From positions 248,656-312,655 of the forward strand of contig NZ_LMNW01000012.1 of assembly GCF_001423125.1 (NCBI RefSeq): a stretch of 64,000 bases of DNA. Reading direction: 5' to 3'. Below are positions 1 through 10,958 of the stretch, in pieces. Below the pieces are notes generated by a model. That model was not told the DNA's origin and made no database searches. It was given only the letters and a program-made list of their open reading frames with translations. A program made the translations under genes and the position numbers. The stretch's first letter is position 1, and each line of letters begins with the position of its first letter. This stretch comes from Duganella sp. Leaf126. GTDB lineage: Bacteria; Pseudomonadota; Gammaproteobacteria; Burkholderiales; Burkholderiaceae_D.

Positions 1-547
1 TATACGTCGCGAACTGGTGCCAGCGGTCGGGCGCGGCCAGCGTCAGCGTCTGGCGCGCGTGCTCGGGATCGAAAATCGCGGTGGACGTTTCGCCGTCGTG
101 CGTCAGGCGCAGCAAGCCCTTGTGCTGCGGGTCGATCTCGGCAAACAGCCGGTAACCGACATCGAGCGACGTGACCGGCGCCGCGCAGGTGGCGGTAAAC
201 CGCAGCACGCTGTAGGCGCCGTCGGTATGGTTGTCGATCAGCTGCTGCTGCGGCGTGACCGTGCACCGCCCCTGGCCGGTGGACAGGGTCAGGCGTTCGA
301 GCGCATAGGCGGCAATGGCCGCATGGCGCGTGCGGATTTCATCCCAGGTCAGCTTGCCGTCGCCGTCCTGGTCCAGGCCCAGCGCAAAATCGAGGTCGCG
401 CAGCGCGATGTCCCATTGACCGCTGATCTGGGCGCCGCGGATATCGAGCGCCAGGTAGCTGTCGCTGGGCTTGTGCGCCTGCGCCGGCAGCAGCGCGCCG
501 CACAGGCAGACCAGGACGAACAGCCGGTACCACCAGCGCGCCGTCAC
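1..547 (-). CDS. HupE/UreJ-type protein, N-terminal part (cut by window edge)
   Basis: This partial gene continues past the left edge; 182 codons are visible. The GTG start overlaps the stop of the upstream TPR gene (GTGA), so the two are translationally coupled. A signal peptide (residues about 8-24, ending PAQA) precedes a soluble periplasmic region. Residues 59-70 form a textbook EF-hand loop (D59, D61, D63, G64, E70), suggesting calcium binding. I assign HupE/UreJ type by the layout of secreted N-terminal domain and by its position after DUF4331 and TPR genes; in that family a multi-pass nickel/cobalt permease-like domain follows, which cannot be seen here. The assignment is therefore tentative, but a real exported protein is well supported. 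Confidence 0.7.
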   Translation of the reverse strand, partial: MTARWWYRLFVLVCLCGALLPAQAHKPSDSYLALDIRGAQISGQWDIALRDLDFALGLDQDGDGKLTWDEIRTRHAAIAAYALERLTLSTGQGRCTVTPQQQLIDNHTDGAYSVLRFTATCAAPVTSLDVGYRLFAEIDPQHKGLLRLTHDGETSTAIFDPEHARQTLTLAAPDRWHQFATY

Positions 548-1722
548 GCAGCCTCTCCGAGCTGGCGCACCAGCCTGGCGGCGCCAGCGTCTTCCGTCTT
601 GTTCTTCGCGATCCAGTCGAGCACCGGTTGCGCGGCGTCGCGGTCGCGCGCCTGCAGGGCGGCGTCGAGATAGATGCGCATGTCGGCCGGTTCCTTCTGG
701 ATCGCCCAGTTCTTGCGCGCCAGCGTCAGCGCCCGCGCCGTATCGCGCCGCAGCAGCTCGAAGCGGGCCTGCTCGCGCTGGTGCACGGTGTCGCCGCGCA
801 GCATGGCCGCGTCGAAGCGTGCGCCCAGTTCGGCCACGTCGGCTGCCAGGGCGGCGCCCTTGCCTTGCTGCTGCAGCGCCAGCGCGCGGCGCAGCAGCAG
901 GGCATCGATGCGGGTCTGGTCGGCCAGCAGCGCCTCCACCCGCGACGGCCGTTTTTGTTCGAGCAAAAAGTCGCAGTAGGCGCCCAGCAGGTAGCTGTCG
1001 CGCGGGTCGAGCGCCAGTGCGCGCTGGAAGCGCGTCTCCGCCAGTTCTGCGGCGTCGCGCCGCTGCGCCATTTCGGCCAGCAGCGTCAGCACCCAGACCT
1101 GCAGCTCGGGCGCGGTCTTGCCGCTGCGCTCGAGCGTGAGCGCCAGCAGCTGTTCGCTTTGCAGTGCGCGGCCGGTCACGGCGCCCACCTGCGCCACGCA
1201 GGTGACGGTGATCAGTTCATTGGCCAGCGACGACAGGTGCGCGCAGCTGCGGGTGGCGCCGGCGTAGTCGCCCTGCACGGTTTGTACCGTGGCCAGGGTC
1301 AGCCAGGCCTGGGCATTCTGCGGCTCGGCCGCCAGCACGCCTTGCAGGTCGGCCAGTGCGGCAGGAAACTGGTGGGTGCTTTGCAGCAGCGTGGCGCGCA
1401 GCAGCCGTACTGCCGGCGGTGGTGCGGCCATCTTCCACCACGGCGCCAGCGCGGCTTCGGCGTAGCCGAGGTAGCGCGGATCGGTCTCGCTGCGGCCCAG
1501 CGCAATGTAGCGTTTGGCCAGCGTGGTGGCCAGTGCCATGTCGTCGGGACGGGCGTTGAGCTGTGCGCGCAGCCGGCGCAGTTCCTGCTGGACCGGGTCG
1601 CCCCGGCGCGGCAGGGTTTCGATCACCTGGGCGCCGCTGGCGGGAATGTATGGTGCTGCGTGGGCGCAGGCGACGGCGCCCACCACCGCGCACAGCGTGA
1701 ATAACTTCTGGAGTCTGCTCAT
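544..1722 (-). CDS. Exported tetratricopeptide-repeat protein
   Basis: A 392-residue protein with a signal peptide (MSRLQKLFTLC..., cleavage near HA-APY) followed by helical repeats with TPR character, for example around residues 110-160 (W-L-LA pattern) and 225-260 (ALALDPRDSYLLGAY). I chose the ATG at 1722 because AGGA lies seven bases upstream; a TTG five codons earlier is possible but poorer. It lies between the small lipoprotein gene and the HupE/UreJ-type gene and overlaps the latter. The likely role is a periplasmic scaffold for the neighbouring envelope proteins; no enzymatic motif is seen. Confidence 0.82.
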   Translation of the reverse strand: MSRLQKLFTLCAVVGAVACAHAAPYIPASGAQVIETLPRRGDPVQQELRRLRAQLNARPDDMALATTLAKRYIALGRSETDPRYLGYAEAALAPWWKMAAPPPAVRLLRATLLQSTHQFPAALADLQGVLAAEPQNAQAWLTLATVQTVQGDYAGATRSCAHLSSLANELITVTCVAQVGAVTGRALQSEQLLALTLERSGKTAPELQVWVLTLLAEMAQRRDAAELAETRFQRALALDPRDSYLLGAYCDFLLEQKRPSRVEALLADQTRIDALLLRRALALQQQGKGAALAADVAELGARFDAAMLRGDTVHQREQARFELLRRDTARALTLARKNWAIQKEPADMRIYLDAALQARDRDAAQPVLDWIAKNKTEDAGAARLVRQLGEAA

Positions 1723-1846
1723 CGATGCATCCTGCAATCACAAAGAACGACAATAAGAACAAACGGCGCCGGTCCTGCAACGGACCAGCGCCGGGGTCAT
1801 GCCCGATTGCCCTGAAAGCTTTACGGGAACCACGTCAAACCTGCTG

Positions 1847-1926
1847 CGCGACCCGCTATCGCCTCTCCGTTGCTCAGCGTACCTCCGTACGCTTGCGCTA
1901 CTTAAGACGATATCGGGCGGCTCGCG
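1847..1926. repeat. Nested inverted-repeat element
   Basis: Between the TPR and lipoprotein genes. The outer arms 1847-1861 and 1908-1926 pair over CGCGA/TCGCG, CCCG/CGGG and TATCG/CGATA, with one small bulge and one mismatch. Inside, 1876-1882 and 1887-1893 form a perfect 7-bp stem (AGCGTAC/GTACGCT) with a four-base loop that reads GGAG on the gene strand. There is no T-run, so it is not a standard terminator. It could be a processing or stability hairpin in the operon mRNA, or one copy of a dispersed palindromic repeat. Confidence 0.5.
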
Positions 1927-1945
1927 ACGGTTTTTCGCGGTCCCC

Positions 1946-2209
1946 TTATTTCAGCGCGACCGGCTCGGTGTCTTCCGGTGCGGTGGCCGTGATGCTGTCG
2001 GTGGCCACCGGCTCGGTCGTGGTCTCGCTGCCGTCGCCGATCAGCGCCAGCACCGCGCTGTAAAAGCTGTCCACCATGCTGCCGCCGCCGCTACCGCCGC
2101 CGCCACTGCTGCCGCCGCCGGTATTGCTGATTGCATGGTCATCGCTGCTGCCGCAGCCGGCCAGGGCCAGCAGCGCTGCAGCGCCCAGTGTCACCGTGAT
2201 TTTTTTCAT
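1946..2209 (-). CDS. Small Gly/Ser-linker lipoprotein of unknown function
   Basis: An 87-residue protein with a lipoprotein signal and lipobox LAGC (acylated Cys at residue 19), then a Gly/Ser-rich flexible stretch (about residues 29-44), then a short acidic tail with an ATAPEDTEP-type motif. The ATG at 2209 has a strong AAGGAG site and overlaps the stop of the DUF4331 gene as ATGA, so translation is coupled. It is probably anchored in the outer membrane with the tail as a tethered peptide. I do not recognise a named family. A longer reading of the frame to 2383 only adds out-of-frame DUF4331 sequence. Confidence 0.75.
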   Translation of the reverse strand: MKKITVTLGAAALLALAGCGSSDDHAISNTGGGSSGGGGSGGGSMVDSFYSAVLALIGDGSETTTEPVATDSITATAPEDTEPVALK

Positions 2210-3732
2210 CGTGCGCTCCTTGCCGATTGGGCCACGGCGGCGCTTTGCGGCGAGCCGGCGATCGGGGTTTTCAGGTAAGGGAAGCCGGCGTTGAAGAAGC
2301 TGTCGTCGATGTAGGCGCCGTCGGTGAACTGCAGCGCGCCGGCCGGTGCATCCGACGGTGCGCAGCCGAGGCTGATGGTGCACAGCTTGCCCATCACCAC
2401 GCGCAGGGCGATATCGACCACGTCGTCGCCGGGACGGCGGCCGTTCGGGAAGCCGGCATTGTCGCCGCCGATCACGCCGAGGCGGCTTTGCGAACCCATG
2501 GCCGTTACCGGCGTCGAGGTGTTCAGGCGCAGCATCTCGGACGCGGTGACGGTGGCCGGCTGGTTCAGGCCCTTGACGCCGGTGAGGAAGGCGGCCACCA
2601 GGTCGTTACGCGGGAAGTTGGTCGGCGCCTTGGCGCCGGCGCTGCCGTACAGGATCTCGATCAGCGCGGGCAGGGTGGGGTTGGTCACGTAATCGGCAAA
2701 CTGGGCGTCGCCGGAAGGCTTGCTGGCGTTGAAGGTGTCCTTGTCTTTCAGGCCGATCACCACTTCGTTGACCAATGGCGAACCGAGGCGCGAAACCTGG
2801 GTCCAGGCGCCGCCTTCCTTCGATGGCGTCGAGCTGTTCGGGGTCGGATTGAGCAGGCGCGCCTGGCGCACGCTGGCCGTGGTCCAGCCGCCGATGACCG
2901 GGTCGCTGCTGTTGGCGGCGGTCAGGCACGATGCCGCCACTTCCATCTCGATCGAGGTCACGTTCTTCTGCGCCAGGTCGTCCTTGGCTGCGCGTTCGGC
3001 GTTGGCGGCAAATTCCACGGCCGGCGCCTTGATGTTGACCAGGTCGAAGGTTTCGCCGAGGTTGACCACGAACGGATCCTTGCGCTGGCCGACGAACACG
3101 CGGGCCGGCGTCGAGCAGCCGGGGATGTTGACGCTGTACACGTGGGCAGCGGCATAGGCGGCGTAGTCGGGGATCGACTTGTTGCCGATGTTGTCGAGCG
3201 GCTTGTCGAAGGTGGTGCCGCCGGCGGCATTGGTGATCGCCGACTTGGTACCGGTGCGGCGGTCGCCGCGCACCACGTTGATGGTGTAGGTTTCGCGCAC
3301 ATTGGCGCCGGCGGCATTGGCGCCGGCGATGGCGCCGCCGTTGATCACCAGCGGAATCGAGACCGATTTGCCGCCCACGGTCAGCTTGGTGTCCTTGTTG
3401 GTGTTGGTGAAGCGGAACTGGAAGGTGATGTCTTCCTTGGCGTCGCCGTTGTTATCGATGTGGATTTCGTACAGCGCGTTCGGGTCCATGGCGAAGTAGT
3501 TCGGACCGCCGTAGGCATCCTGCAGTGGCACGTAATCGGCGATCAGCGTGACGAAGCCGGAGCGGCCCGTCTCGTAGCTGCGGAACATGTAAAAGTCGGT
3601 GCCGTCCACTTTCGGACTTTGCGTCACGAACGGCGCTTCGCGGTGGCTCGACGCCATCGCTGCCGGCGCCAGCGCGCCAGCCAGGGTACCCAGTACTGCC
3701 ATGCCCAAGGCATGCTTGATCAACGTTTGCAT
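2206..3732 (-). CDS. DUF4331 family exported protein
   Basis: A 508-residue exported protein with a signal peptide (cleavage after AMA, about residue 27). The mature N terminus SSHREAPF is the hallmark of DUF4331, a family of unknown biochemical function, and FYMFRSYE follows as in the family. The start has AAAGGGGA upstream. It lies 130 bases downstream of the TonB-dependent receptor gene on the same strand and overlaps the lipoprotein gene. The central region carries at least three Cys (near residues 205, 268 and 452) that could form disulfides. The conserved neighbours suggest it works with the receptor and lipoprotein at the cell surface; substrate unknown. Confidence 0.88.
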   Translation of the reverse strand: MQTLIKHALGMAVLGTLAGALAPAAMASSHREAPFVTQSPKVDGTDFYMFRSYETGRSGFVTLIADYVPLQDAYGGPNYFAMDPNALYEIHIDNNGDAKEDITFQFRFTNTNKDTKLTVGGKSVSIPLVINGGAIAGANAAGANVRETYTINVVRGDRRTGTKSAITNAAGGTTFDKPLDNIGNKSIPDYAAYAAAHVYSVNIPGCSTPARVFVGQRKDPFVVNLGETFDLVNIKAPAVEFAANAERAAKDDLAQKNVTSIEMEVAASCLTAANSSDPVIGGWTTASVRQARLLNPTPNSSTPSKEGGAWTQVSRLGSPLVNEVVIGLKDKDTFNASKPSGDAQFADYVTNPTLPALIEILYGSAGAKAPTNFPRNDLVAAFLTGVKGLNQPATVTASEMLRLNTSTPVTAMGSQSRLGVIGGDNAGFPNGRRPGDDVVDIALRVVMGKLCTISLGCAPSDAPAGALQFTDGAYIDDSFFNAGFPYLKTPIAGSPQSAAVAQSARSAR

Positions 3733-3862
3733 CGTATATCCCCTTTGGTTTAAATGTCGGTTACTGCAAACTGCGGTTGTTGCCTACACTGCCTACACTG
3801 CTCACACCTATACGGCGCACGATTGCCGTCGGATTCATAAATGGCTAACTTTTTTTGCATCG
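3733..3862. other. Receptor-DUF4331 spacer
   Basis: This 130-base gap contains a short direct repeat (GCCTACACT twice, 3782-3799). I see no terminator, so readthrough from the receptor into the DUF4331 gene is plausible. Confidence 0.4.
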
Positions 3863-5899
3863 TCAAAAGCGGTGGCTCAGCGTGAGCCGCGCGGTGCGCG
3901 GTTCCACCGGATGGAAATGGAGGTCGTTGACGCCGTCGGCCGGTTCGCCCGGCAGGCGCGACGCGTAGTAGTAATCGATGTCGCTGGCCTTGCGGTTGAG
4001 CAGGTTGAAGCCGTCCAGGGTCAGGCGCGTGCGCGGCGTGAACTGGTAGCCGATGCGCCCGTACAGCAGCGTGGTGGCGTTCGAGCGCACGCTGTTGTCT
4101 TCGATCAGCGGGCGCTTGCCGAAATAGCGCAGCTCGAGCGCGCCCTGCCAGCGGCCCAGATCCTTGACCGTGACGCCGAACGACGCCACCCGGTCCAGCG
4201 CCTCGGGCACGTAATTGCCGGCCGGGTCGCTCTGGCGGTAGCGCGCGCGCGAGGCCGACAGGTCGAGGTCGAACAGCAGCCAGGGCGCCGCGATGTAATG
4301 GCTGCTCCACTCGATGCCGCGGCGGCGGCTGGGCCGGCTCGGTTCGGTCTGGCCGCTGTCGCCCGCGAACACCAGTTCCGAGTCGATATCGAGCGTCCAC
4401 AGCGACAGCGACGTCTGCAGACCGGGCAGCCATTCGCTGCGCACCCCCAGCTCATAGCCGCGCGTGCCCACCAGCGGCGTGGCCGGATCGGCCGCCTGCA
4501 CCACGCCGCGCGCGTCGTTGCTGTGGAAGCCGGCGCCGTAGTTGATGAAATACTCGGTATCGGCCCATGGCCCCAGGATCACCGACAGCTTGGGCGAGGT
4601 GCGCTGCGCGGTCACGCGGTCGCCGTCGACATCGAAGCGGTAGCCGTCGTGGCGCACCCCGAGCACGGTGCGCAGCGTAGGCTGCCAGTATGCGGTGTTC
4701 TCGACGTAGACGCCGGCGCTGGCTTCGTTGACCCGGTCTTCGCGCACGGTGCCGATGCGCGCGCGGGCCACCGTGGCGTACAGGCCCAGCGGCGAGATAT
4801 GGTCGTAGCGCGTCTGCACGCCGATCTTGTTGCGCACCTCGACGCCGCCCCAGCTGGCCAGCCAGGCCGTGCTGGCGTTGACGCCGGCCATGGTGCGCCG
4901 TTCGCTTTGCTGGAACTGGTCGCCGTTGACGGGATCGTTCAGAAAATAGGTGAAGTTGCTGAACAGGTCCAGCCGCGAGCGCACGATGTAGGCGGCCGCC
5001 TCGCTCACGCGGTTGTCGTCCTTGACGTGCATGGCCCATGACAGGCTGGCGCGGTCGGTCTTGCCGCCGTCGCTGGCGTCGATGGCGCCGAAGCGGTCGA
5101 TCACCCCCTGCTGCACGGCGCGCAGCGGCACCTGGTCGGTGGCGTTCCAGCGGTTGCGGTATGCCATGGCGGTGATGTTGTAGCCGCGCTGTTCGTCGCC
5201 GCTGCTATAGCGCAGCAGCGCGCTGGCCTTGCGCACGTTTTCCGGAGCATCCCACGGACCGTCGTTGCGGCCCGCATCGACGCCGTACAGCAGCTTGCCG
5301 CCGGCGAGGTCGAACGCGTTCGCCAGCAGCGCACGCTGGTAACCGTAGCTGCCCAGCGTGGCGCTGGCCAGCCCCTGCGGCAGCGTGTCGACCAGGCTCA
5401 GTCGGGCGGCGCCGGCCGACGAGAAGTCGCCTTCGTCGGCAAAATACGGTCCCTTGCGGTAGTCGATGCGCTGCACCAGCTCGGGAATCACGAAGTTGAG
5501 GTCCGAGTAGCCCTGGCCATGCGCGTTGGTGCGCAGATTGACCGGCATCGCGTCCACATAGGTGGCAAAGTCGGTGCCGTGGTCGAGGTTGAAGCCGCGC
5601 AGGAAATACTGGTTGGCCTTGCCGTCGCCGCTGTGCTGGGTGACGATCATGCCGGGCACGAATTCGAGCAGCTCGCCCGTGCGCAGGGCAGGGCGGTTGG
5701 CGATCAGGCTGGCCGTGACCGTGCCTTCGCTGGCGGCATCGGCCGTGCCCACGGCATTGTCGTAGTGGCCGAGCACCGTCACGCTGGGCGGGGCGGCGTC
5801 GTCTTCCACCAGCGCTACGGCAGGCTCGCCGTGCGCGCCGGGCGCCAGCATCATCGCCAGCACACCTGCCATGGCGCCCATCACCGATTCAACTCTCAT
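3863..5899 (-). CDS. TonB-dependent outer-membrane receptor
   Basis: A 678-residue receptor. The signal peptide ends near AHG-EPA, and a TonB-box-like VTVLGH follows. The plug domain (about 45-165) has LRTGELLEFVPG, QYFLRGFNLDHG and a RIDYRKGPYFAD segment. The 22-strand barrel ends in the terminal aromatic LTLSHRF. No N-terminal STN signalling domain is present. The ATG at 5899 follows a good AGGAG; the frame upstream to 6271 is antisense to the sigma gene. It heads the DUF4331 series and is divergent from an ECF sigma gene, so that sigma factor probably controls it. Substrate unknown; neighbours suggest a trace metal or small chelate. Confidence 0.88.
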   Translation of the reverse strand: MRVESVMGAMAGVLAMMLAPGAHGEPAVALVEDDAAPPSVTVLGHYDNAVGTADAASEGTVTASLIANRPALRTGELLEFVPGMIVTQHSGDGKANQYFLRGFNLDHGTDFATYVDAMPVNLRTNAHGQGYSDLNFVIPELVQRIDYRKGPYFADEGDFSSAGAARLSLVDTLPQGLASATLGSYGYQRALLANAFDLAGGKLLYGVDAGRNDGPWDAPENVRKASALLRYSSGDEQRGYNITAMAYRNRWNATDQVPLRAVQQGVIDRFGAIDASDGGKTDRASLSWAMHVKDDNRVSEAAAYIVRSRLDLFSNFTYFLNDPVNGDQFQQSERRTMAGVNASTAWLASWGGVEVRNKIGVQTRYDHISPLGLYATVARARIGTVREDRVNEASAGVYVENTAYWQPTLRTVLGVRHDGYRFDVDGDRVTAQRTSPKLSVILGPWADTEYFINYGAGFHSNDARGVVQAADPATPLVGTRGYELGVRSEWLPGLQTSLSLWTLDIDSELVFAGDSGQTEPSRPSRRRGIEWSSHYIAAPWLLFDLDLSASRARYRQSDPAGNYVPEALDRVASFGVTVKDLGRWQGALELRYFGKRPLIEDNSVRSNATTLLYGRIGYQFTPRTRLTLDGFNLLNRKASDIDYYYASRLPGEPADGVNDLHFHPVEPRTARLTLSHRF

Positions 5900-6065
5900 C
5901 CGGTCTCCTGAAAACGTCGAATTTATTTTCTTTATGAAAATGATTCTACGCAAGGAACATGAAAACGGATTCATGATTCGTACAGTGCGCGGGTCCATGT
6001 GGTATTTTCCTGTCGCTTCCATTTTTAAATCCGGTTCCGTTCCCCAACACACAGACAAGCTCACC

Positions 6066-6653
6066 GTGCCAGACATTATTACTACCGACCCCCAGCAACT
6101 GCGGCGCTGGCTCGAAGGCGCCGCGCGCCGCGATGCAGCGGCCTTTCGCGCCCTGTACGACGCCGTGTCGCCGAAACTGTTCGGCTTTGCGCTGCGTATA
6201 TTGAACAGGCGTGAACTAGCCGAAGATGTTTTACAGGAGAGCTTTGTGGCGATCTGGAACAATGCAGGCAACTACCAAAGCCACCTTGCCGCACCGATGA
6301 CATGGATGACCACCATCGTGCGCAACAAGGCCTATGACGCGCTGCGCCGCAGCGACGACGACGCCGAGATCGATGGCGATCCGTACGCCGCTGCCGTGAT
6401 GGACGCCTTGCGCGATCCGGGCGCCACGCCGATCGATGCGCTGGAACTGAGCCGCGACGCCAAGGCGCTGGCCTACTGCATGTCGGCCCTGGAAGGCGTG
6501 CACCGGCAGGTGATGGGACTGGCCTATTTCCACGACCTGTCGCACAGCGAGGTGGCCGCGCACATGGCGCTGCCGATCGGCACGGTCAAGACCTGGATCC
6601 GCCGCAGCCTGGAAAAACTCAAGGCCTGCCTGGCGCGCGAGGCGGCGCCATGA
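6066..6653 (+). CDS. ECF-type RNA polymerase sigma factor
   Basis: A 195-residue sigma-70 family protein. Region 2 lies at about residues 25-70 ([28 protein letters not shown]). Region 4 is at about 135-190 ([37 protein letters not shown]). I favour the GTG at 6066, which places region 2 at the usual distance; upstream in-frame ATGs are possible. It overlaps the anti-sigma gene by ATGA and is divergent from the TonB-dependent receptor. It is likely released from the anti-sigma factor by an envelope signal and then transcribes the receptor/DUF4331 series. Confidence 0.88.
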
Positions 6654-7375
6654 ACCTGCGCGACAACCTGCCCCTGCGCGAAAAACTGGCAGCCGAATAC
6701 GCGCTTGGCACCCTGCGGGGCGGCGCCCGGCGCCGCTTCGAAGCTTATCTGCACCACGACGCCGCACTGCGCCGCACCGTGGCCGAATGGCAGGACCGGC
6801 TGGCGCCGCTGGCCGAGTTCGCGGGGGCGCAGACGCCGCGCCGGCAGGTCTGGACCGGCATCGAGCGCCGGCTCGGCTTGCGCCCGGCGGTGCCGGCCTG
6901 GCAGTTCTGGCGCAGCGAAGCCTGGCACATGGCAGGTGCCGGTGCGTGGCGCCCGCTGGCCATCGTCTCGACGGCGGCCGCGCTGGTACTGGCCGCGCTG
7001 CTGGCCACGCACGGCATGCAGGCGCCGCAGGCCGAATACCTGGCCACCCTGACCGACGACAAGGCGCAGCCGGTGCTGGTGCTGGCGGCCGACCAAAACC
7101 GGCGGCAGCTGACGGTGCGCCTGGTCGGCGGTGCACCGGTCGCGCCGGACAAATCGCTGCAGCTGTGGGCAGTGCCCAAGTCCGGCAACCCGCGTTCGCT
7201 GGGCCTGGTCGATCCGTCCGGCCGGCTGACGCTGGCGCCGGGCGCCCCGTCACGCGCCATCGGCGCCGACGTGGCGCTGCTGGCGGTTTCGCTGGAACCG
7301 AAGGGCGGCTCGCGCGATCCGAACGGACCGAGCGGGCCGATACTGTACAAGGGGAACTGGGTGCGCGTGCTGTAG
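6650..7375 (+). CDS. RskA-type membrane anti-sigma factor
   Basis: A 241-residue protein. The cytoplasmic N-terminal domain ([18 protein letters not shown]) has the composition of zinc-less anti-sigma domains. One transmembrane helix lies at about residues 103-122 ([17 protein letters not shown]). The C-terminal periplasmic domain has the RskA pattern ([17 protein letters not shown]). The start overlaps the sigma stop by ATGA. It should hold the ECF sigma factor at the membrane. The receptor opposite has no STN domain, so the FecA/FecR mode of signalling does not apply; regulated proteolysis or redox sensing is more likely. Confidence 0.87.
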
Positions 7376-7495
7376 CGCGCCGGCCACCGGAGCGGGCTGG
7401 CACCATAGCCAGAATCAATGGCGCAGGTCGTTGACTGGGTGACAAATATGAACGATCATCGTGAAATCGTTTTCTTGACCCTGTGCCCCGTGACC

Positions 7496-9253
7496 ATGCC
7501 AACTACCTTCCCGTTCCACCGGCGCGCCGCGCTCGCCGTCGCCATCGCCAGCAGCTGCGCCGCTTCTTGCGGCGGCGCCAGTGCGGCCGACATCAAGCTC
7601 AATCAGCTGGGCTTTCTGCCCGGCGCCGTCAAGGTAGCGGTGGTGCCGGAGACGGGCGCCACGACGTTCAGCGTGATCCGCGCCGCAGGGGGGACCGGAG
7701 GTGGGACGGTGGTGCTGCAAGGGACGCTGAGCGCCGCCAGGTCGGCGCCGGAGTCGGGCGAGACGGTGCGGCAGGCCGATTTTTCCACGCTGACCACGGC
7801 GGGCCGCTACCAGCTGCGCGTGGCCGGACTGCCCGATTCGCTGCCGTTCGACGTTTCGGCCAGCGCCTTCCAGGCGCTCAATGCCGGTGCGATCCGCGCC
7901 TATTACTACAACCGCGCCAGCATTGCGCTCGACCGGCAGCACGCCGGCGTGTACGCGCGCGCGGCCGGCCACCCGGATACCAGCGTGATGGTGCACGCTT
8001 CGGCCGCGTCGAGCGCGCGCCCGGCCGGCACCATCATCTCCAGTCCCAAGGGCTGGTACGACGCCGGCGACTACAACAAGTACATCGTCAATTCCGGTAT
8101 CTCGACCTACACGCTGCTGGCCGCGTGGGAAGACTTCCCGGCCCAGTTCCGCCAGCAGGCGCTCAATATTCCGGAGAGCGGCAACGGCATTCCCGACCTG
8201 CTCAATGAAACGCTGTGGAACCTGCAGTGGATGCTGACCATGCAGGACCCCAACGACGGCGGCGTGTACCACAAGCTCACCGACAAGAGCTTCGACGGCT
8301 TCGTGATGCCGGCCGACGCCCACCAGCAGCGTTACGTGGTGCAGAAGACCACCGCCGCCGCACTCGATTTTGCCGCCGTGATGGCCACCGCCAGCCGCGT
8401 CCTCGCGCCCTATGACAAGCAGCTGCCCGGTCTGGCCGCGCGCATGCGCACGGCTGCCGAACGCGCGTGGCGCTGGGCCAATGCCAATCCCAGGGCGTAC
8501 TACCAGCAGCCGGCCGACATCAAGACCGGCGAGTATGGCGACCAGGACGTGCGCGACGAATTCGCGTGGGCTGCCGCCGAACTGTTCATCACCACCGGCG
8601 ACGCCGCGTATTACCAGGCCATGCAGGCGCCGACCGTGCAGGCCACGGTGCCGTCGTGGGGCCAGGTGGACAGCCTGGCGTGGATGTCGCTGGCGCGCCA
8701 CCGCCAGCACCTGGCGGCGGTCGCCGACCAGGCCCTGATCGCCAGCCGCATCGATACCTTGTCGAGCCAGCTGGCGGCGGTCAGCCAGCGCTCGGCCTAC
8801 GGCACCGCGATGCAGGCTGCCGATTACGTCTGGGGCAGCAATGCCATGGTGCTGAACCAGGCCATGGTGCTGCTGCACGGCTACCGCCTGACCGGCAAGC
8901 GCACCTACCTCGACGCGGCGCAGGCCAATTTCGACTACATCCTCGGCCGCAACGCCGTCGATATCTCGTTCGTCACCGGGTTCGGCGCGCGCTCGACGCT
9001 GCACCCGCACCACCGGCCGTCGGAAGCGGACGGCATCGCCGCGCCGGTGCCCGGTTTCGTGGCCGGCGGGCCCCAGCCCGGCCGCGAAGACCAGAAGGAC
9101 TGCAAGGCCAGCTACGCCTCGACCTTGCCGGCACGCGCTTACCTCGATGATGTCTGTTCATATGCCAGCAACGAGGTGGCCATCAACTGGAATGCGCCGC
9201 TGGTGTACGTATCGGCGGCCCTGCAGGCGCTGACGCCGGCACCTGCCAAGTGA
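7496..9253 (+). CDS. Glycoside hydrolase family 9 (endoglucanase-type), exported
   Basis: A 585-residue enzyme. Signal peptide (HRRAALAVAIASS, cleavage near ASA-ADI), then an N-terminal immunoglobulin-like CelD_N domain (about 30-115, beginning IKLNQLGFLP), then the GH9 catalytic (alpha/alpha)6 barrel. Key residues are visible: the DAGDYNKY motif holding the base aspartates, the GFGARSTLHPHHRPSE region, and the acid Glu in NEVAINWNAPLVY. The ATG at 7496 gives a clean signal peptide; earlier in-frame ATGs add no sensible sequence. It acts on beta-1,4-glucan or similar chains in the periplasm or outside the cell. The gene stands alone before the trehalase gene. Confidence 0.9.
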   Translation: MPTTFPFHRRAALAVAIASSCAASCGGASAADIKLNQLGFLPGAVKVAVVPETGATTFSVIRAAGGTGGGTVVLQGTLSAARSAPESGETVRQADFSTLTTAGRYQLRVAGLPDSLPFDVSASAFQALNAGAIRAYYYNRASIALDRQHAGVYARAAGHPDTSVMVHASAASSARPAGTIISSPKGWYDAGDYNKYIVNSGISTYTLLAAWEDFPAQFRQQALNIPESGNGIPDLLNETLWNLQWMLTMQDPNDGGVYHKLTDKSFDGFVMPADAHQQRYVVQKTTAAALDFAAVMATASRVLAPYDKQLPGLAARMRTAAERAWRWANANPRAYYQQPADIKTGEYGDQDVRDEFAWAAAELFITTGDAAYYQAMQAPTVQATVPSWGQVDSLAWMSLARHRQHLAAVADQALIASRIDTLSSQLAAVSQRSAYGTAMQAADYVWGSNAMVLNQAMVLLHGYRLTGKRTYLDAAQANFDYILGRNAVDISFVTGFGARSTLHPHHRPSEADGIAAPVPGFVAGGPQPGREDQKDCKASYASTLPARAYLDDVCSYASNEVAINWNAPLVYVSAALQALTPAPAK

Positions 9254-9341
9254 GCGCGTCAGCGGGACGTAGCGGTATTCGCTGCTGAGGTAACATCGAG
9301 TCCGAGACGCGCCACCGGGAGCGCGCCACGGAGGAGAGACG

Positions 9342-10958
9342 ATGAAGGGAAACAAGCGCGTACCTGCTGCGCTGCTGCTGGCAGCGGCCTGGCTGGCAGC
9401 GACCGGCCAGGCCGCTGCACAGACGACGCCCGCGCAAGGCGCCAGCAAATCTGACGTCATGCCGGACGTTCCCACGCCGCAGCAGCTGTTCGGTCCACTG
9501 TACCAGGCGGTGCAAACCGCCCACATCTACCCCGACGCCAAGACCTTTGCCGATGCCGTGCCGAAGGCCGATCCGCAAGCGATCCTGGCGCAGTACCGGC
9601 AGCAGCAACCGCGCGACAAGGCGGCGCTGCAAGCCTTCGTGGAACGCCACTTCACCCTGCCGGCGCCAGCCGCCATCACGCTGCGCCAGCACATCGCCTC
9701 GCTGTGGCCGGTGCTCACGCGCCCGCCGCTCGATCCGCCCAGGTGGTCGTCGGCCTTGCCGCTGCCGGCCAGTTACGTGGTGCCGGGCGGGCGCTTTCGC
9801 GAAATTTATTACTGGGATTCGTATTTCACGATGCTGGGCTTACAGGCCGACCACCGCAGCGACCTGGTCGAGTCGATGATCGTCGGCTTCCAGAGCCTGA
9901 TCGAGCGTTACGGCCACATCCCCAACGGCACCCGCAGCTATTACCTGAGCCGCTCGCAGCCGCCGTTCTTCGCGGCCATGGCGCAACTCAAGCCGCTCGG
10001 CGACACCGCTGCCGATGCGCGCCTGCTGGCCGCGCTCAGGCGCGAGCACGATTACTGGATGCGCGGTGCTGCGTGCCTGCCGCAGAGCGGGCAGGGCGCC
10101 TGCGAACACGTGGTACGCCTGGCCGACGGCACCATCCTCAACCGCTACTGGGATGCCAAAGACACGCCGCGCGACGAGGCCACCCAGCCCGACCTCGACA
10201 CGGCCCGCGACAGCGGCCGCTCGACACCCGAACTGTTCCGCGACCTGCGCGCGGCGGCCGAGAGCGGCTGGGACTTTTCGTCGCGCTGGCAGGACGATCC
10301 GCAGCGCCTGGCCACCGTGCACACGACCGCGATCGCGCCGGTGGACCTGAACAGCCTGCTCTACCAGCTCGAAGGCGAAGTGGCGCGCCGCTGCGAAGCT
10401 GCGCACGACACGGCGTGCGCCGCGCAGTACCGGCAGGCCAGCGCGACCCGCGCGGCGGCCATCCAGCGCATCTTCTGGGTCGGCGCCGAGCAGCGCTATG
10501 CCGACTACGACCTGCGCCACCAGCGCCCTACCGCGGTGCTGAGCGCGGCCACCTATTACCCGCTGTGGGTCGGCATCGCCACGCCGGCGCAGGCGGCAGC
10601 CGTGGCCGACACCACCCGGCGCCAGCTGCTGGCCGAAGGCGGCGTACGCACCACCTTGCTGCGCACGGGCCAGCAATGGGACGCCCCCAACGGCTGGGCG
10701 CCGCTGCAGTGGATCGCCGTCGATGGCCTGTCCCGCTACGGCCACACCGCCCTGGCGCGCGACATCGCCGGACGCTGGGTCAACACCGTCCACCGCACCT
10801 GGCTGGAAACGGGCAAGCTGCTGGAAAAATACGATGTCGAAGAACGCAAGACCGGCGGCGGCGGCGAATATCCGACCCAGGACGGCTTCGGCTGGACCAA
10901 CGGCGTCACCAGCGCGCTGCTCGAGCGGTATCCGGACCTTGGCCGGGAGCGAGAATAG
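9342..10958 (+). CDS. treA: Periplasmic alpha,alpha-trehalase (GH37)
   Basis: A 538-residue enzyme that hydrolyses trehalose to two glucoses. The signal peptide ends near AAA-QTT. Both trehalase signatures are present: PGGRFREIYYWDSY at about residues 148-161 and QWDAPNGWAP at about 445-454. The Gly-rich GGGGEYPTQDGFGWTNG segment near the C terminus is also typical. GGAGGAGA precedes the ATG. Length fits the family. It follows the GH9 gene by 88 bases on the same strand; coupled expression is possible but not shown. Confidence 0.94.
   Translation: MKGNKRVPAALLLAAAWLAATGQAAAQTTPAQGASKSDVMPDVPTPQQLFGPLYQAVQTAHIYPDAKTFADAVPKADPQAILAQYRQQQPRDKAALQAFVERHFTLPAPAAITLRQHIASLWPVLTRPPLDPPRWSSALPLPASYVVPGGRFREIYYWDSYFTMLGLQADHRSDLVESMIVGFQSLIERYGHIPNGTRSYYLSRSQPPFFAAMAQLKPLGDTAADARLLAALRREHDYWMRGAACLPQSGQGACEHVVRLADGTILNRYWDAKDTPRDEATQPDLDTARDSGRSTPELFRDLRAAAESGWDFSSRWQDDPQRLATVHTTAIAPVDLNSLLYQLEGEVARRCEAAHDTACAAQYRQASATRAAAIQRIFWVGAEQRYADYDLRHQRPTAVLSAATYYPLWVGIATPAQAAAVADTTRRQLLAEGGVRTTLLRTGQQWDAPNGWAPLQWIAVDGLSRYGHTALARDIAGRWVNTVHRTWLETGKLLEKYDVEERKTGGGGEYPTQDGFGWTNGVTSALLERYPDLGRERE

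What the first reader, a model, noticed from the sequence alone, without database searches (positions are those of the whole stretch)
1..7375. ECF-sigma-linked envelope system: TonB receptor, DUF4331, mini-lipoprotein, TPR and HupE/UreJ-type protein
Five exported or outer-membrane proteins lie in one orientation with coupled starts (ATGA and GTGA overlaps) and face an ECF sigma/RskA-type anti-sigma pair. DUF4331 and the mini-lipoprotein have no known function, and HupE/UreJ proteins are linked to nickel or cobalt. My inference is an uptake or sensing system for a scarce metal or chelate, spanning outer membrane to inner membrane. This is the best candidate in the window for an undescribed system.
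Basis: partly seen in the sequence, partly recalled or inferred. Interest (0 to 1): 0.68.

Follow-up and report, generated by a model that had tools for sequence, protein, structure and literature searches.

The report
Metal-capture operon with its own sigma
A soil bacterium carries a widely conserved but undescribed gene set that probably catches a scarce metal (nickel, cobalt or copper) outside the cell and passes it inward, switched on by its own dedicated regulator; the metal itself is not yet known.

Summary
TonB receptor, DUF4331, mini-lipoprotein, TPR protein and HupE/UreJ_2 lie on one strand, facing an ECF sigma/RskA pair. Linkage is far beyond chance: in 60 genomes of the genus, 43 of 44 full-length DUF4331 genes have HupE/UreJ_2 within 5 kb; DUF4331-TPR-permease order recurs in alpha-, beta- and gammaproteobacteria and, with a NicO nickel permease, in Streptomyces. 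(1) HupE begins, after its signal peptide, with a histidine, and its periplasmic domain is predicted to fold like the copper/nickel-binding 'anglerase' Ang-1 (PDB 9GCE, Z 12.8). (2) A promoter-like motif, TGAATCC-N16-CGT, occurs exactly twice in the 5.3-Mb genome, upstream of the TonB receptor and of DUF4331, so the sigma probably serves this locus. DUF4331 looks secreted or surface-bound: it lies in type II secretion clusters in Rhodobacterales, carries a T9SS tail in Adhaeribacter, and sits beside a sortase gene in Streptomyces. Metal capture and import is the best explanation (0.6). No metal is proven, the TonB receptor is near DUF4331 in only 25 of 80 loci, and in relatives the motif also precedes stress-type genes.

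The parts
1..547 (-). HupE/UreJ_2 permease with N-terminal anglerase (Ang-1)-like domain; first 182 of 373 aa are in the window, the rest lies left of it (L002:9382-9956)
   Evidence: PF13795 172.6 bits; predicted mature N-terminus His ('PAQA|HKPSDSYL'); orthologue model matches 9GCE, Z 12.8
544..1722 (-). Exported TPR protein, 392 aa; stop overlaps HupE start (GTGA)
   Evidence: Pfam TPR_19 38.7 bits; relative downstream of DUF4331 in 64 of 80 loci
1764..1793 (-). Terminator-like hairpin between lipoprotein and TPR (12 pairs)
   Evidence: not enriched by number; z -2.57; some such hairpin in only 9 of 53 locus entries, the own locus counted twice
1946..2209 (-). Mini-lipoprotein, 87 aa, lipobox LAGC, C-terminal twin EP motif
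   Evidence: No Pfam match; relatives in the same place in 59 of 80 loci; similar small lipoproteins in two alphaproteobacterial records
2206..3732 (-). DUF4331 protein, 508 aa, predicted mature N-terminus SSHREAP
   Evidence: PF14224 537.9 bits; motif in 98 of 98 hits
3812..3837 (-). ECF-type promoter motif TGAATCC-N16-CGT upstream of DUF4331
3863..5899 (-). TonB-dependent outer-membrane receptor, 678 aa, no signalling domain listed by Pfam
   Evidence: PF00593 and PF07715
5948..5973 (-). ECF-type promoter motif TGAATCC-N16-CGT upstream of TBDR
   Evidence: footprint of 10 loci
6066..6653 (+). ECF sigma factor (SigK-like), 195 aa from GTG 6066
   Evidence: PF04542/PF04545; cysteine pair 50 residues apart as in SigK
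6650..7375 (+). RskA-type anti-sigma factor, 241 aa
   Evidence: PF10099 81.4 bits

Best explanation
A metal-acquisition apparatus spanning the envelope, under a dedicated SigK-like ECF sigma. Proposed steps: (1) when a signal releases the sigma from RskA, it reads the TBDR and DUF4331 genes from TGAATCC-N16-CGT promoters (sites shown; regulation inferred). (2) DUF4331, exported and probably held at or outside the outer membrane with its partner mini-lipoprotein, captures a transition metal or metal complex; its invariant N-terminal tail S-S-H-R-E-A-P is a candidate ATCUN-type site (inferred). (3) Where present, the TonB receptor moves the metal or chelate into the periplasm (inferred). (4) The TPR protein scaffolds or chaperones the handover (inferred, weakest step). 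(5) The His1 anglerase-like domain of HupE picks the metal up and feeds it to the permease with its H-X3-G-X-D-H helix (fold and His1 shown by prediction; transport by analogy). The most likely metals are Ni, Cu or Co.
For: HupE/UreJ_2 within 5 kb of 43 of 44 full-length DUF4331 genes in 60 genomes. TPR and HupE both downstream in 56 of 80 loci (47 of 65 with 5 kb on both sides) and in 10 of 14 unnamed-genome loci with full DUF4331 (L118-L131); the run also in Lichenicola. Streptomyces: DUF4331-TPR-'nickel transporter', NicO by Pfam. DUF4198, whose studied member binds nickel (PMC12537917, passages), beside DUF4331 in 5 of 47 diverse loci (four confirmed by Pfam). HupE model best PDB match 9GCE, model 20..167 on chain 1..158, so His20 falls on His1; a His at the predicted cut in 67 of 68 HupE hits. 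Strict motif 2 in own genome, reversed control 0, both here; 58 against 1 reversed control in 1.92 Mb of loci. Surface location: T2SS genes around DUF4331 in 5 of 5 opened Rhodobacterales records, T9SS tail, sortase neighbour; own genome has a T2SS secretin, 626.6 bits.
Against: No metal, transport or expression data. TBDR in reach in 25 of 80 loci only. The opened Rhodobacterales stretches show no TPR or HupE beside DUF4331, and four Acinetobacter loci (L084, L085, L089, L090) lack HupE in reach, so parts can work without the permease. In Adhaeribacter the likely signal-peptide cut lies well before SSHREAP, so an ATCUN site is not universal; the tail is modelled with pLDDT under 50. In relatives the motif also precedes an FAD oxidoreductase gene and a fasciclin gene, pointing to envelope stress. 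The motif is absent upstream of DUF4331 in 14 of 14 loci, and 3 DUF4331-positive family genomes (G050, G120, G135) have no strict match at all. Urease association is weak: 91 of 116 against 101 of 178 in the family, phylogeny uncorrected; 12 of 17 against 9 of 9 in the genus, the wrong direction. No riboswitch in 7 loci.
Confidence: 0.6

Rival explanations
1. Envelope or photo-oxidative stress module: DUF4331 and partners are part of an old SigK/RskA (and ChrR-like) regulon that protects or remodels the envelope, and HupE is a hitch-hiker or handles metal released by damage.
For: TGAATCC-N16-CGT sites in relatives lie upstream of an FAD oxidoreductase gene (5 of 16 regions fetched) and of a fasciclin gene (2 of 16); in Rhodobacter fasciclin and cyclopropane-fatty-acid genes respond to photo-oxidative stress (PMC7074977, passages); Streptomyces plasmids carry fasciclin genes near DUF4331.
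Against: The window's genome has no DUF1365 and no strict site outside this locus, while the permease is linked in 43 of 44 cases.
Confidence: 0.22
2. Metal detoxification or sequestration: the surface protein, lipoprotein and anglerase-like domain bind excess Cu or Ni, and HupE moves it to storage or out.
For: A HupE/UreJ-like gene and TonB-type genes rise in nickel-rich medium in Sphingobium (PMC5557971, passages).
Against: No recurrent efflux pump or metal-regulator family was among the shared neighbours found in 47 loci, apart from clusters I did not identify; a TonB receptor is an importer.
Confidence: 0.1
3. Two independent units: an ECF-controlled receptor for an iron or other chelate, next to a DUF4331-TPR-HupE cassette with another task.
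For: TBDR is absent near most DUF4331 genes and lies several kb away in Janthinobacterium.
Against: Those distant Janthinobacterium TBDRs keep the promoter motif in 4 loci, with spacer 16 in two (L036, L041) and 17 in two (L027, L033); in Acinetobacter L084 DUF4331, TPR and TBDR form one run.
Confidence: 0.2

Closest known systems
Anglerase Ang-1-HupE/UreJ-2 (RbAng-1a, PDB 9GCE; Franco Cairo et al. 2025, PMC12537917)
   Same: Signal peptide, predicted His1, predicted beta-sandwich with three helices between strands 2 and 3, PF13795 permease
   Different: A sequence profile did not find 9GCE; here the gene sits with DUF4331, TPR, mini-lipoprotein, TBDR and ECF/RskA. In the text read the Ang-1 neighbours are mostly 'unknown function', then DUF4198, IndA-like and PfkB; DUF4331 is not named
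SigK-RskA (ECF18/ECF19; PMC7509140)
   Same: RskA_C anti-sigma beside the sigma gene; two cysteines 50 residues apart
   Different: Below the NCBIfam SigK cut-off (123.9 against 226 bits); the strict motif in this genome marks only the DUF4331 locus
DUF4198/HupE nickel loci (PMC12537917)
   Same: DUF4198 lies beside DUF4331 in 5 relatives; one also has a classical HupE (L135)
   Different: No DUF4198 match among this locus's proteins
FecI-FecR-FecA cell-surface signalling
   Same: ECF sigma divergent from a TonB receptor
   Different: No FecR and no signalling domain on the TBDR in the Pfam lists

Membership tests
Ang-1 anglerase-HupE/UreJ-2 | PF13795 permease domain | tested here: met
   172.6 bits, cut-off 24.5
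Ang-1 anglerase-HupE/UreJ-2 | Histidine directly after signal peptide | tested here: met
   by pattern on the sequence: 67 of 68 HupE hits, the other cut by a contig end; the real cut was not measured
Ang-1 anglerase-HupE/UreJ-2 | Ang-1 fold | tested here: met
   model of the L012 orthologue: 9GCE first, Foldseek E 3.8e-5, Z 12.8, rmsd 3.1, 135 aligned
Ang-1 anglerase-HupE/UreJ-2 | Binds Cu or Ni | not testable with these tools
   needs purified protein
HupE/UreJ Ni/Co permease | HPXXGXDH in first TM helix (PMC7689651, passage) | tested here: inconclusive
   HIWIGYDH: H, G, D, H invariant in 47 of 47 rows, proline absent
SigK (ECF18/19) | NCBIfam SigK model cut-off | tested here: not met
   123.9 against 226 bits
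SigK (ECF18/19) | Adjacent RskA and cysteine pair 50 apart | tested here: met
   (pair in 8 of 9 ECF loci printed; L087 lacks it); C133/C183 from PMC7509140 (passage)
FecIRA cell-surface signalling | FecR anti-sigma and STN domain on receptor | tested here: not met
   Pfam at E 0.01 lists RskA_C only for the anti-sigma, Plug and barrel only for the receptor
BtuB cobalamin receptor | TIGR01779 cut-off | tested here: not met
   23.2 against 599.7 bits
DUF4331 (PF14224) | Full-length Pfam match | tested here: met
   537.9 bits, profile 1-421 of 421

The most novel reading that the evidence does not exclude
DUF4331 is the founding member of a new class of secreted metal-capture proteins, conserved from Bacteroidota to Streptomyces and exported by whatever surface route the host has (T2SS, T9SS, sortase), which catches a transition metal with its N-terminal tail or fold and hands it, via a TPR protein, to a His1-headed inner-membrane permease: a bucket brigade for metal from cell surface to cytoplasm.
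Probability: 0.3. Interest if true: 0.85.

Novelty: new variant of a known kind. Interest (0 to 1): 0.62.

Why it matters
DUF4331 is a widespread family for which no paper was found in the library searched, and PMC7509140 (passage) states that the signal of the SigK/RskA cascade is unknown. Tying both to a His1-headed metal permease makes each testable: which metal DUF4331 binds, and whether metal status is the signal for this SigK-like pair. A sigma factor whose strict promoter motif occurs only at one locus of its genome is a clean experimental handle.

Tried and rejected
Riboswitch: no Rfam element other than a tRNA at gathering threshold in 7 loci. Vitamin B12 receptor: TIGR01779 far below cut-off; the PDB matches to BtuB cover about the plug region only. 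DUF4331 fold: no convincing PDB match (best Foldseek E 0.031; best VIA-align Z 5.8, antibody domains), so the fold gives no function. Sequence profile of HupE against PDB: no 9GCE match; only the fold comparison found it. Urease co-occurrence as a nickel test: mixed (8 of 200 urease matches, all with E 2e-5 or worse, left out before the count). GH9 cellulase and trehalase beside RskA as members: rejected, phmmer found them in no other locus. Universal ATCUN site: rejected for Adhaeribacter. EF-hand in the Ang domain: loop DQDGDGKLTWDE is below every Pfam EF-hand cut-off, left open. Hairpin as a conserved attenuator: 9 of 53 locus entries. Relaxed promoter motif genome-wide: 21 matches against 13 for the reversed control, so only the strict motif is informative. 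The strict motif has a background elsewhere: 289 of 294 family genomes have at least one match, 10 of 10 handled genomes have 2 to 11. Of 16 extra regions chosen and fetched, 7 showed a repeated target (FAD oxidoreductase 5, fasciclin 2); in the other 9 no shared target was seen and in 2 of them the site lay inside a same-strand ORF. A first parse of HupE starts put the cut at an internal site in 4 of 66 rows (L069, L072, L120, L129); these were too short for alignment A2 or outside it, and re-tested them.
Full report
1. Is it there? Yes. The ORF list and Pfam scans confirm a TonB-dependent receptor (TBDR), DUF4331 (537.9 bits), a lipobox-bearing 87-aa protein without any Pfam match, a TPR protein and a HupE_UreJ_2 permease on the minus strand, facing an ECF sigma and an RskA_C anti-sigma gene. 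The permease is cut by the window edge; the genome (5.31 Mb, 35 contigs) gives it whole, 373 aa. Two of the four junctions are coupled, not all: DUF4331/lipoprotein and TPR/HupE. An alignment of 10 loci, own included, places the sigma start at GTG 6066 (position counted).

2. More than chance? Profile searches on their ORFs give, of 80: TPR downstream 64, HupE downstream 56, both 56, mini-lipoprotein 59, ECF in reach 49, RskA 35, TBDR 25; of the 65 with 5 kb on both sides: 53, 47, 47, 50, 41, 31, 25. In 60 genomes of the genus, 44 full-length DUF4331 genes lie in 43 genomes (7 short or split matches left out); 43 of 44 have HupE_UreJ_2 within 5 kb, 41 on the same strand downstream; the one miss (G713) has its HupE near the end of another contig. 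Conversely 43 of 68 HupE_UreJ_2 genes lie next to DUF4331. DUF4331 occurs in 116 of 294 family genomes and 22 of 398 Pseudomonadota genomes, 6 of these 22 by weak short matches only. Of 14 unnamed-genome loci with full-length DUF4331 (L118-L131), 10 have TPR and HupE with it. BLAST clusters over 47 diverse loci give lower bounds: DUF4331 44, ECF 30, HupE 26, RskA 24, TPR 23, TBDR 8.

3. Wider anatomy. Plasmid records give named cases (31 records; 16 opened, three of them without any annotated feature). Marinobacter, Lichenicola, a Comamonadaceae bacterium and Pseudoalteromonas show DUF4331, then one or two proteins annotated hypothetical or Ig-like, then HupE; the last also sigma and anti-sigma genes in front. 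In Lichenicola the middle protein reads as the TPR relative by eye; the others were not tested. Two Streptomyces plasmids show DUF4331, TPR, 'nickel transporter', a second DUF4331 (two hypothetical genes between in one), a sortase, and a fasciclin gene close by; in the one tested the transporter is NicO by Pfam and again has a histidine at the expected signal cut. Miltoncostaea has DUF4331-TPR. Adhaeribacter has two TBDR genes opposite DUF4331-TPR, and its DUF4331 bears a T9SS tail. In 5 of 5 opened Rhodobacterales records (8 were hit), DUF4331 lies among type II secretion genes; a small gene follows it in four, and the two that I translated bear a lipobox. In five diverse relatives DUF4331 or a diverged relative is beside DUF4198 (cluster; Pfam for four), and one of them (L135) also has a classical HupE.

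4. HupE. By pattern, a histidine follows the signal peptide in 67 of 68 HupE hits, the exception cut by a contig end. AlphaFold2 on the L012 orthologue with 47 rows gave pLDDT 88.0, pTM 0.83, with three helices between strands 2 and 3, as described for Ang-1. The best PDB match is 9GCE, the Ang-1 domain of a Rhodobacteraceae HupE/UreJ-2 with copper bound: Foldseek E 3.8e-5, VIA-align Z 12.8, rmsd 3.1, 135 residues, model 20..167 on chain 1..158, so residue 20, the predicted mature histidine, falls on His1. Next come zinc proteins ZrgA and PA4063. In PMC12537917 (outline, passages and the whole Ang section) Ang-1 bound Cu at 74 nM and Ni at 220 nM, and the authors propose metal capture for the permease. 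DUF4331 is not mentioned in its main text; its supplements were not read.

5. DUF4331. All 98 hits above 400 bits carry [S/A]SH[R/K]E[A/S/G]P (93 SSHREAP); alanine precedes it in 97 of 98 (own gene counted twice). If signal peptidase cuts there, the mature end is X-S-H, an ATCUN-type (Cu/Ni) end; that label is recalled, from no call. A cut two residues later would give His1 instead. Residues 25-37 are modelled with pLDDT under 50 although S29, H30, E32 and P34 are invariant in 57 rows, which fits a functional rather than structural role. Against this, the Adhaeribacter protein has the motif well after its likely signal cut. The fold has no convincing PDB match.

6. Regulation. Aligning the TBDR-sigma gap of 10 loci showed islands of conservation. 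Read toward the TBDR, one is TGAATCC-N16-CGT, of the form of an ECF promoter. In the own genome the strict pattern occurs twice, reversed control zero, upstream of the TBDR and of DUF4331. Over 1.92 Mb of loci there are 58 matches against 1 reversed control; 42 of 97 DUF4331 entries with enough upstream DNA carry it within 350 bp, control 0 (own gene counted twice): 40 of 81 entries, the own locus, and 0 of 14 (the one hit printed under 'gamma/other' is the own locus again as L001). In Duganella relatives it precedes the TBDR instead; in four Janthinobacterium loci it, or the form with a 17-base spacer, precedes TBDRs several kb away. In other genomes the motif is not specific: 2 to 11 matches each in 10 genomes, at least one in 289 of 294 family genomes, while three DUF4331-positive genomes (G050, G120, G135) have none. 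Of 16 extra regions fetched, five have an FAD oxidoreductase gene downstream (L213-L215, L222, L223; DUF1365-like and cyclopropane-synthase-like genes follow in L222 and L223) and two a fasciclin gene (L218, L219); the other nine show no shared target. These names were recognised by eye, not scanned. From recall they are SigK- and ChrR-type targets. The own genome has no DUF1365. The sigma factor has two cysteines 50 residues apart, the spacing of SigK C133/C183, as do 7 of 8 relatives printed (PMC7509140, passages), but misses the NCBIfam SigK cut-off; I call it SigK-like.

7. How it works. I favour metal capture and import (0.6). Shown: gene linkage, predicted anglerase fold and His1, promoter sites. 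Inferred: surface location of DUF4331 (three export contexts in other lineages; the own genome has a T2SS secretin), metal binding by DUF4331, the roles of lipoprotein and TPR, direction of transport, and the metal. Nickel is favoured by the NicO and DUF4198 contexts, copper by Ang-1 chemistry; HupE of Synechocystis moves cobalt (PMC7689651, passages). Urease, a nickel enzyme, does not settle it. The main rival is an envelope or photo-oxidative stress module.

8. Known or new? The parts belong to known families; the permease is, by prediction, a new member of the Ang-1-HupE kind. The cassette as a unit was not found in print: DUF4331 and PF14224 gave 0 papers, while DUF4198 or anglerase gave 10 with the same tool; a search for three of HupE, TonB-dependent, tetratricopeptide and nickel uptake gave 7 papers, none titled on such a cassette (listing only for this question). 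The library lacks most subscription journals, and no supplements were searched.

Noticed in passing
L139, L141, L150, L249, L250: DUF4331 lies among type II secretion genes of Rhodobacterales plasmids (5 of 5 opened), mostly followed by a small, lipoprotein-like gene; no TPR or HupE in the stretches shown.
   Followed up: partly
L055, L087, L130, L131, L135: DUF4198 (PF10670) genes beside DUF4331 or a diverged DUF4331-like gene; L135 also has a classical HupE.
   Followed up: partly
L213-L215, L218, L219, L222, L223: TGAATCC-N16-CGT also precedes an FAD oxidoreductase gene and a fasciclin-domain gene in relatives, suggesting a wider SigK-like regulon.
   Followed up: partly
L084:11788-16002: Acinetobacter TPR protein has a His-rich predicted mature N-terminus (HPKHHHEE), and a gene that looks TonB-like by eye (no Pfam match) follows the TBDR.
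   Followed up: no
L142:1749-3416: Streptomyces NicO-type nickel transporter in the cassette also has a predicted N-terminal His and an EF-hand-like loop, like the HupE here.
   Followed up: no
L118, L119, L121-L123, L126, L129: An Ig-like protein (Big_9 by Pfam in the two tested) with a lipobox takes the place of the mini-lipoprotein after DUF4331.
   Followed up: partly
window 7418-10958: GH9 cellulase and trehalase genes follow RskA on the same strand; not found in the other loci.
   Followed up: partly
L132-L136: Short, strongly diverged DUF4331-like proteins; the one in L136 has an ECF/RskA pair nearby.
   Followed up: no
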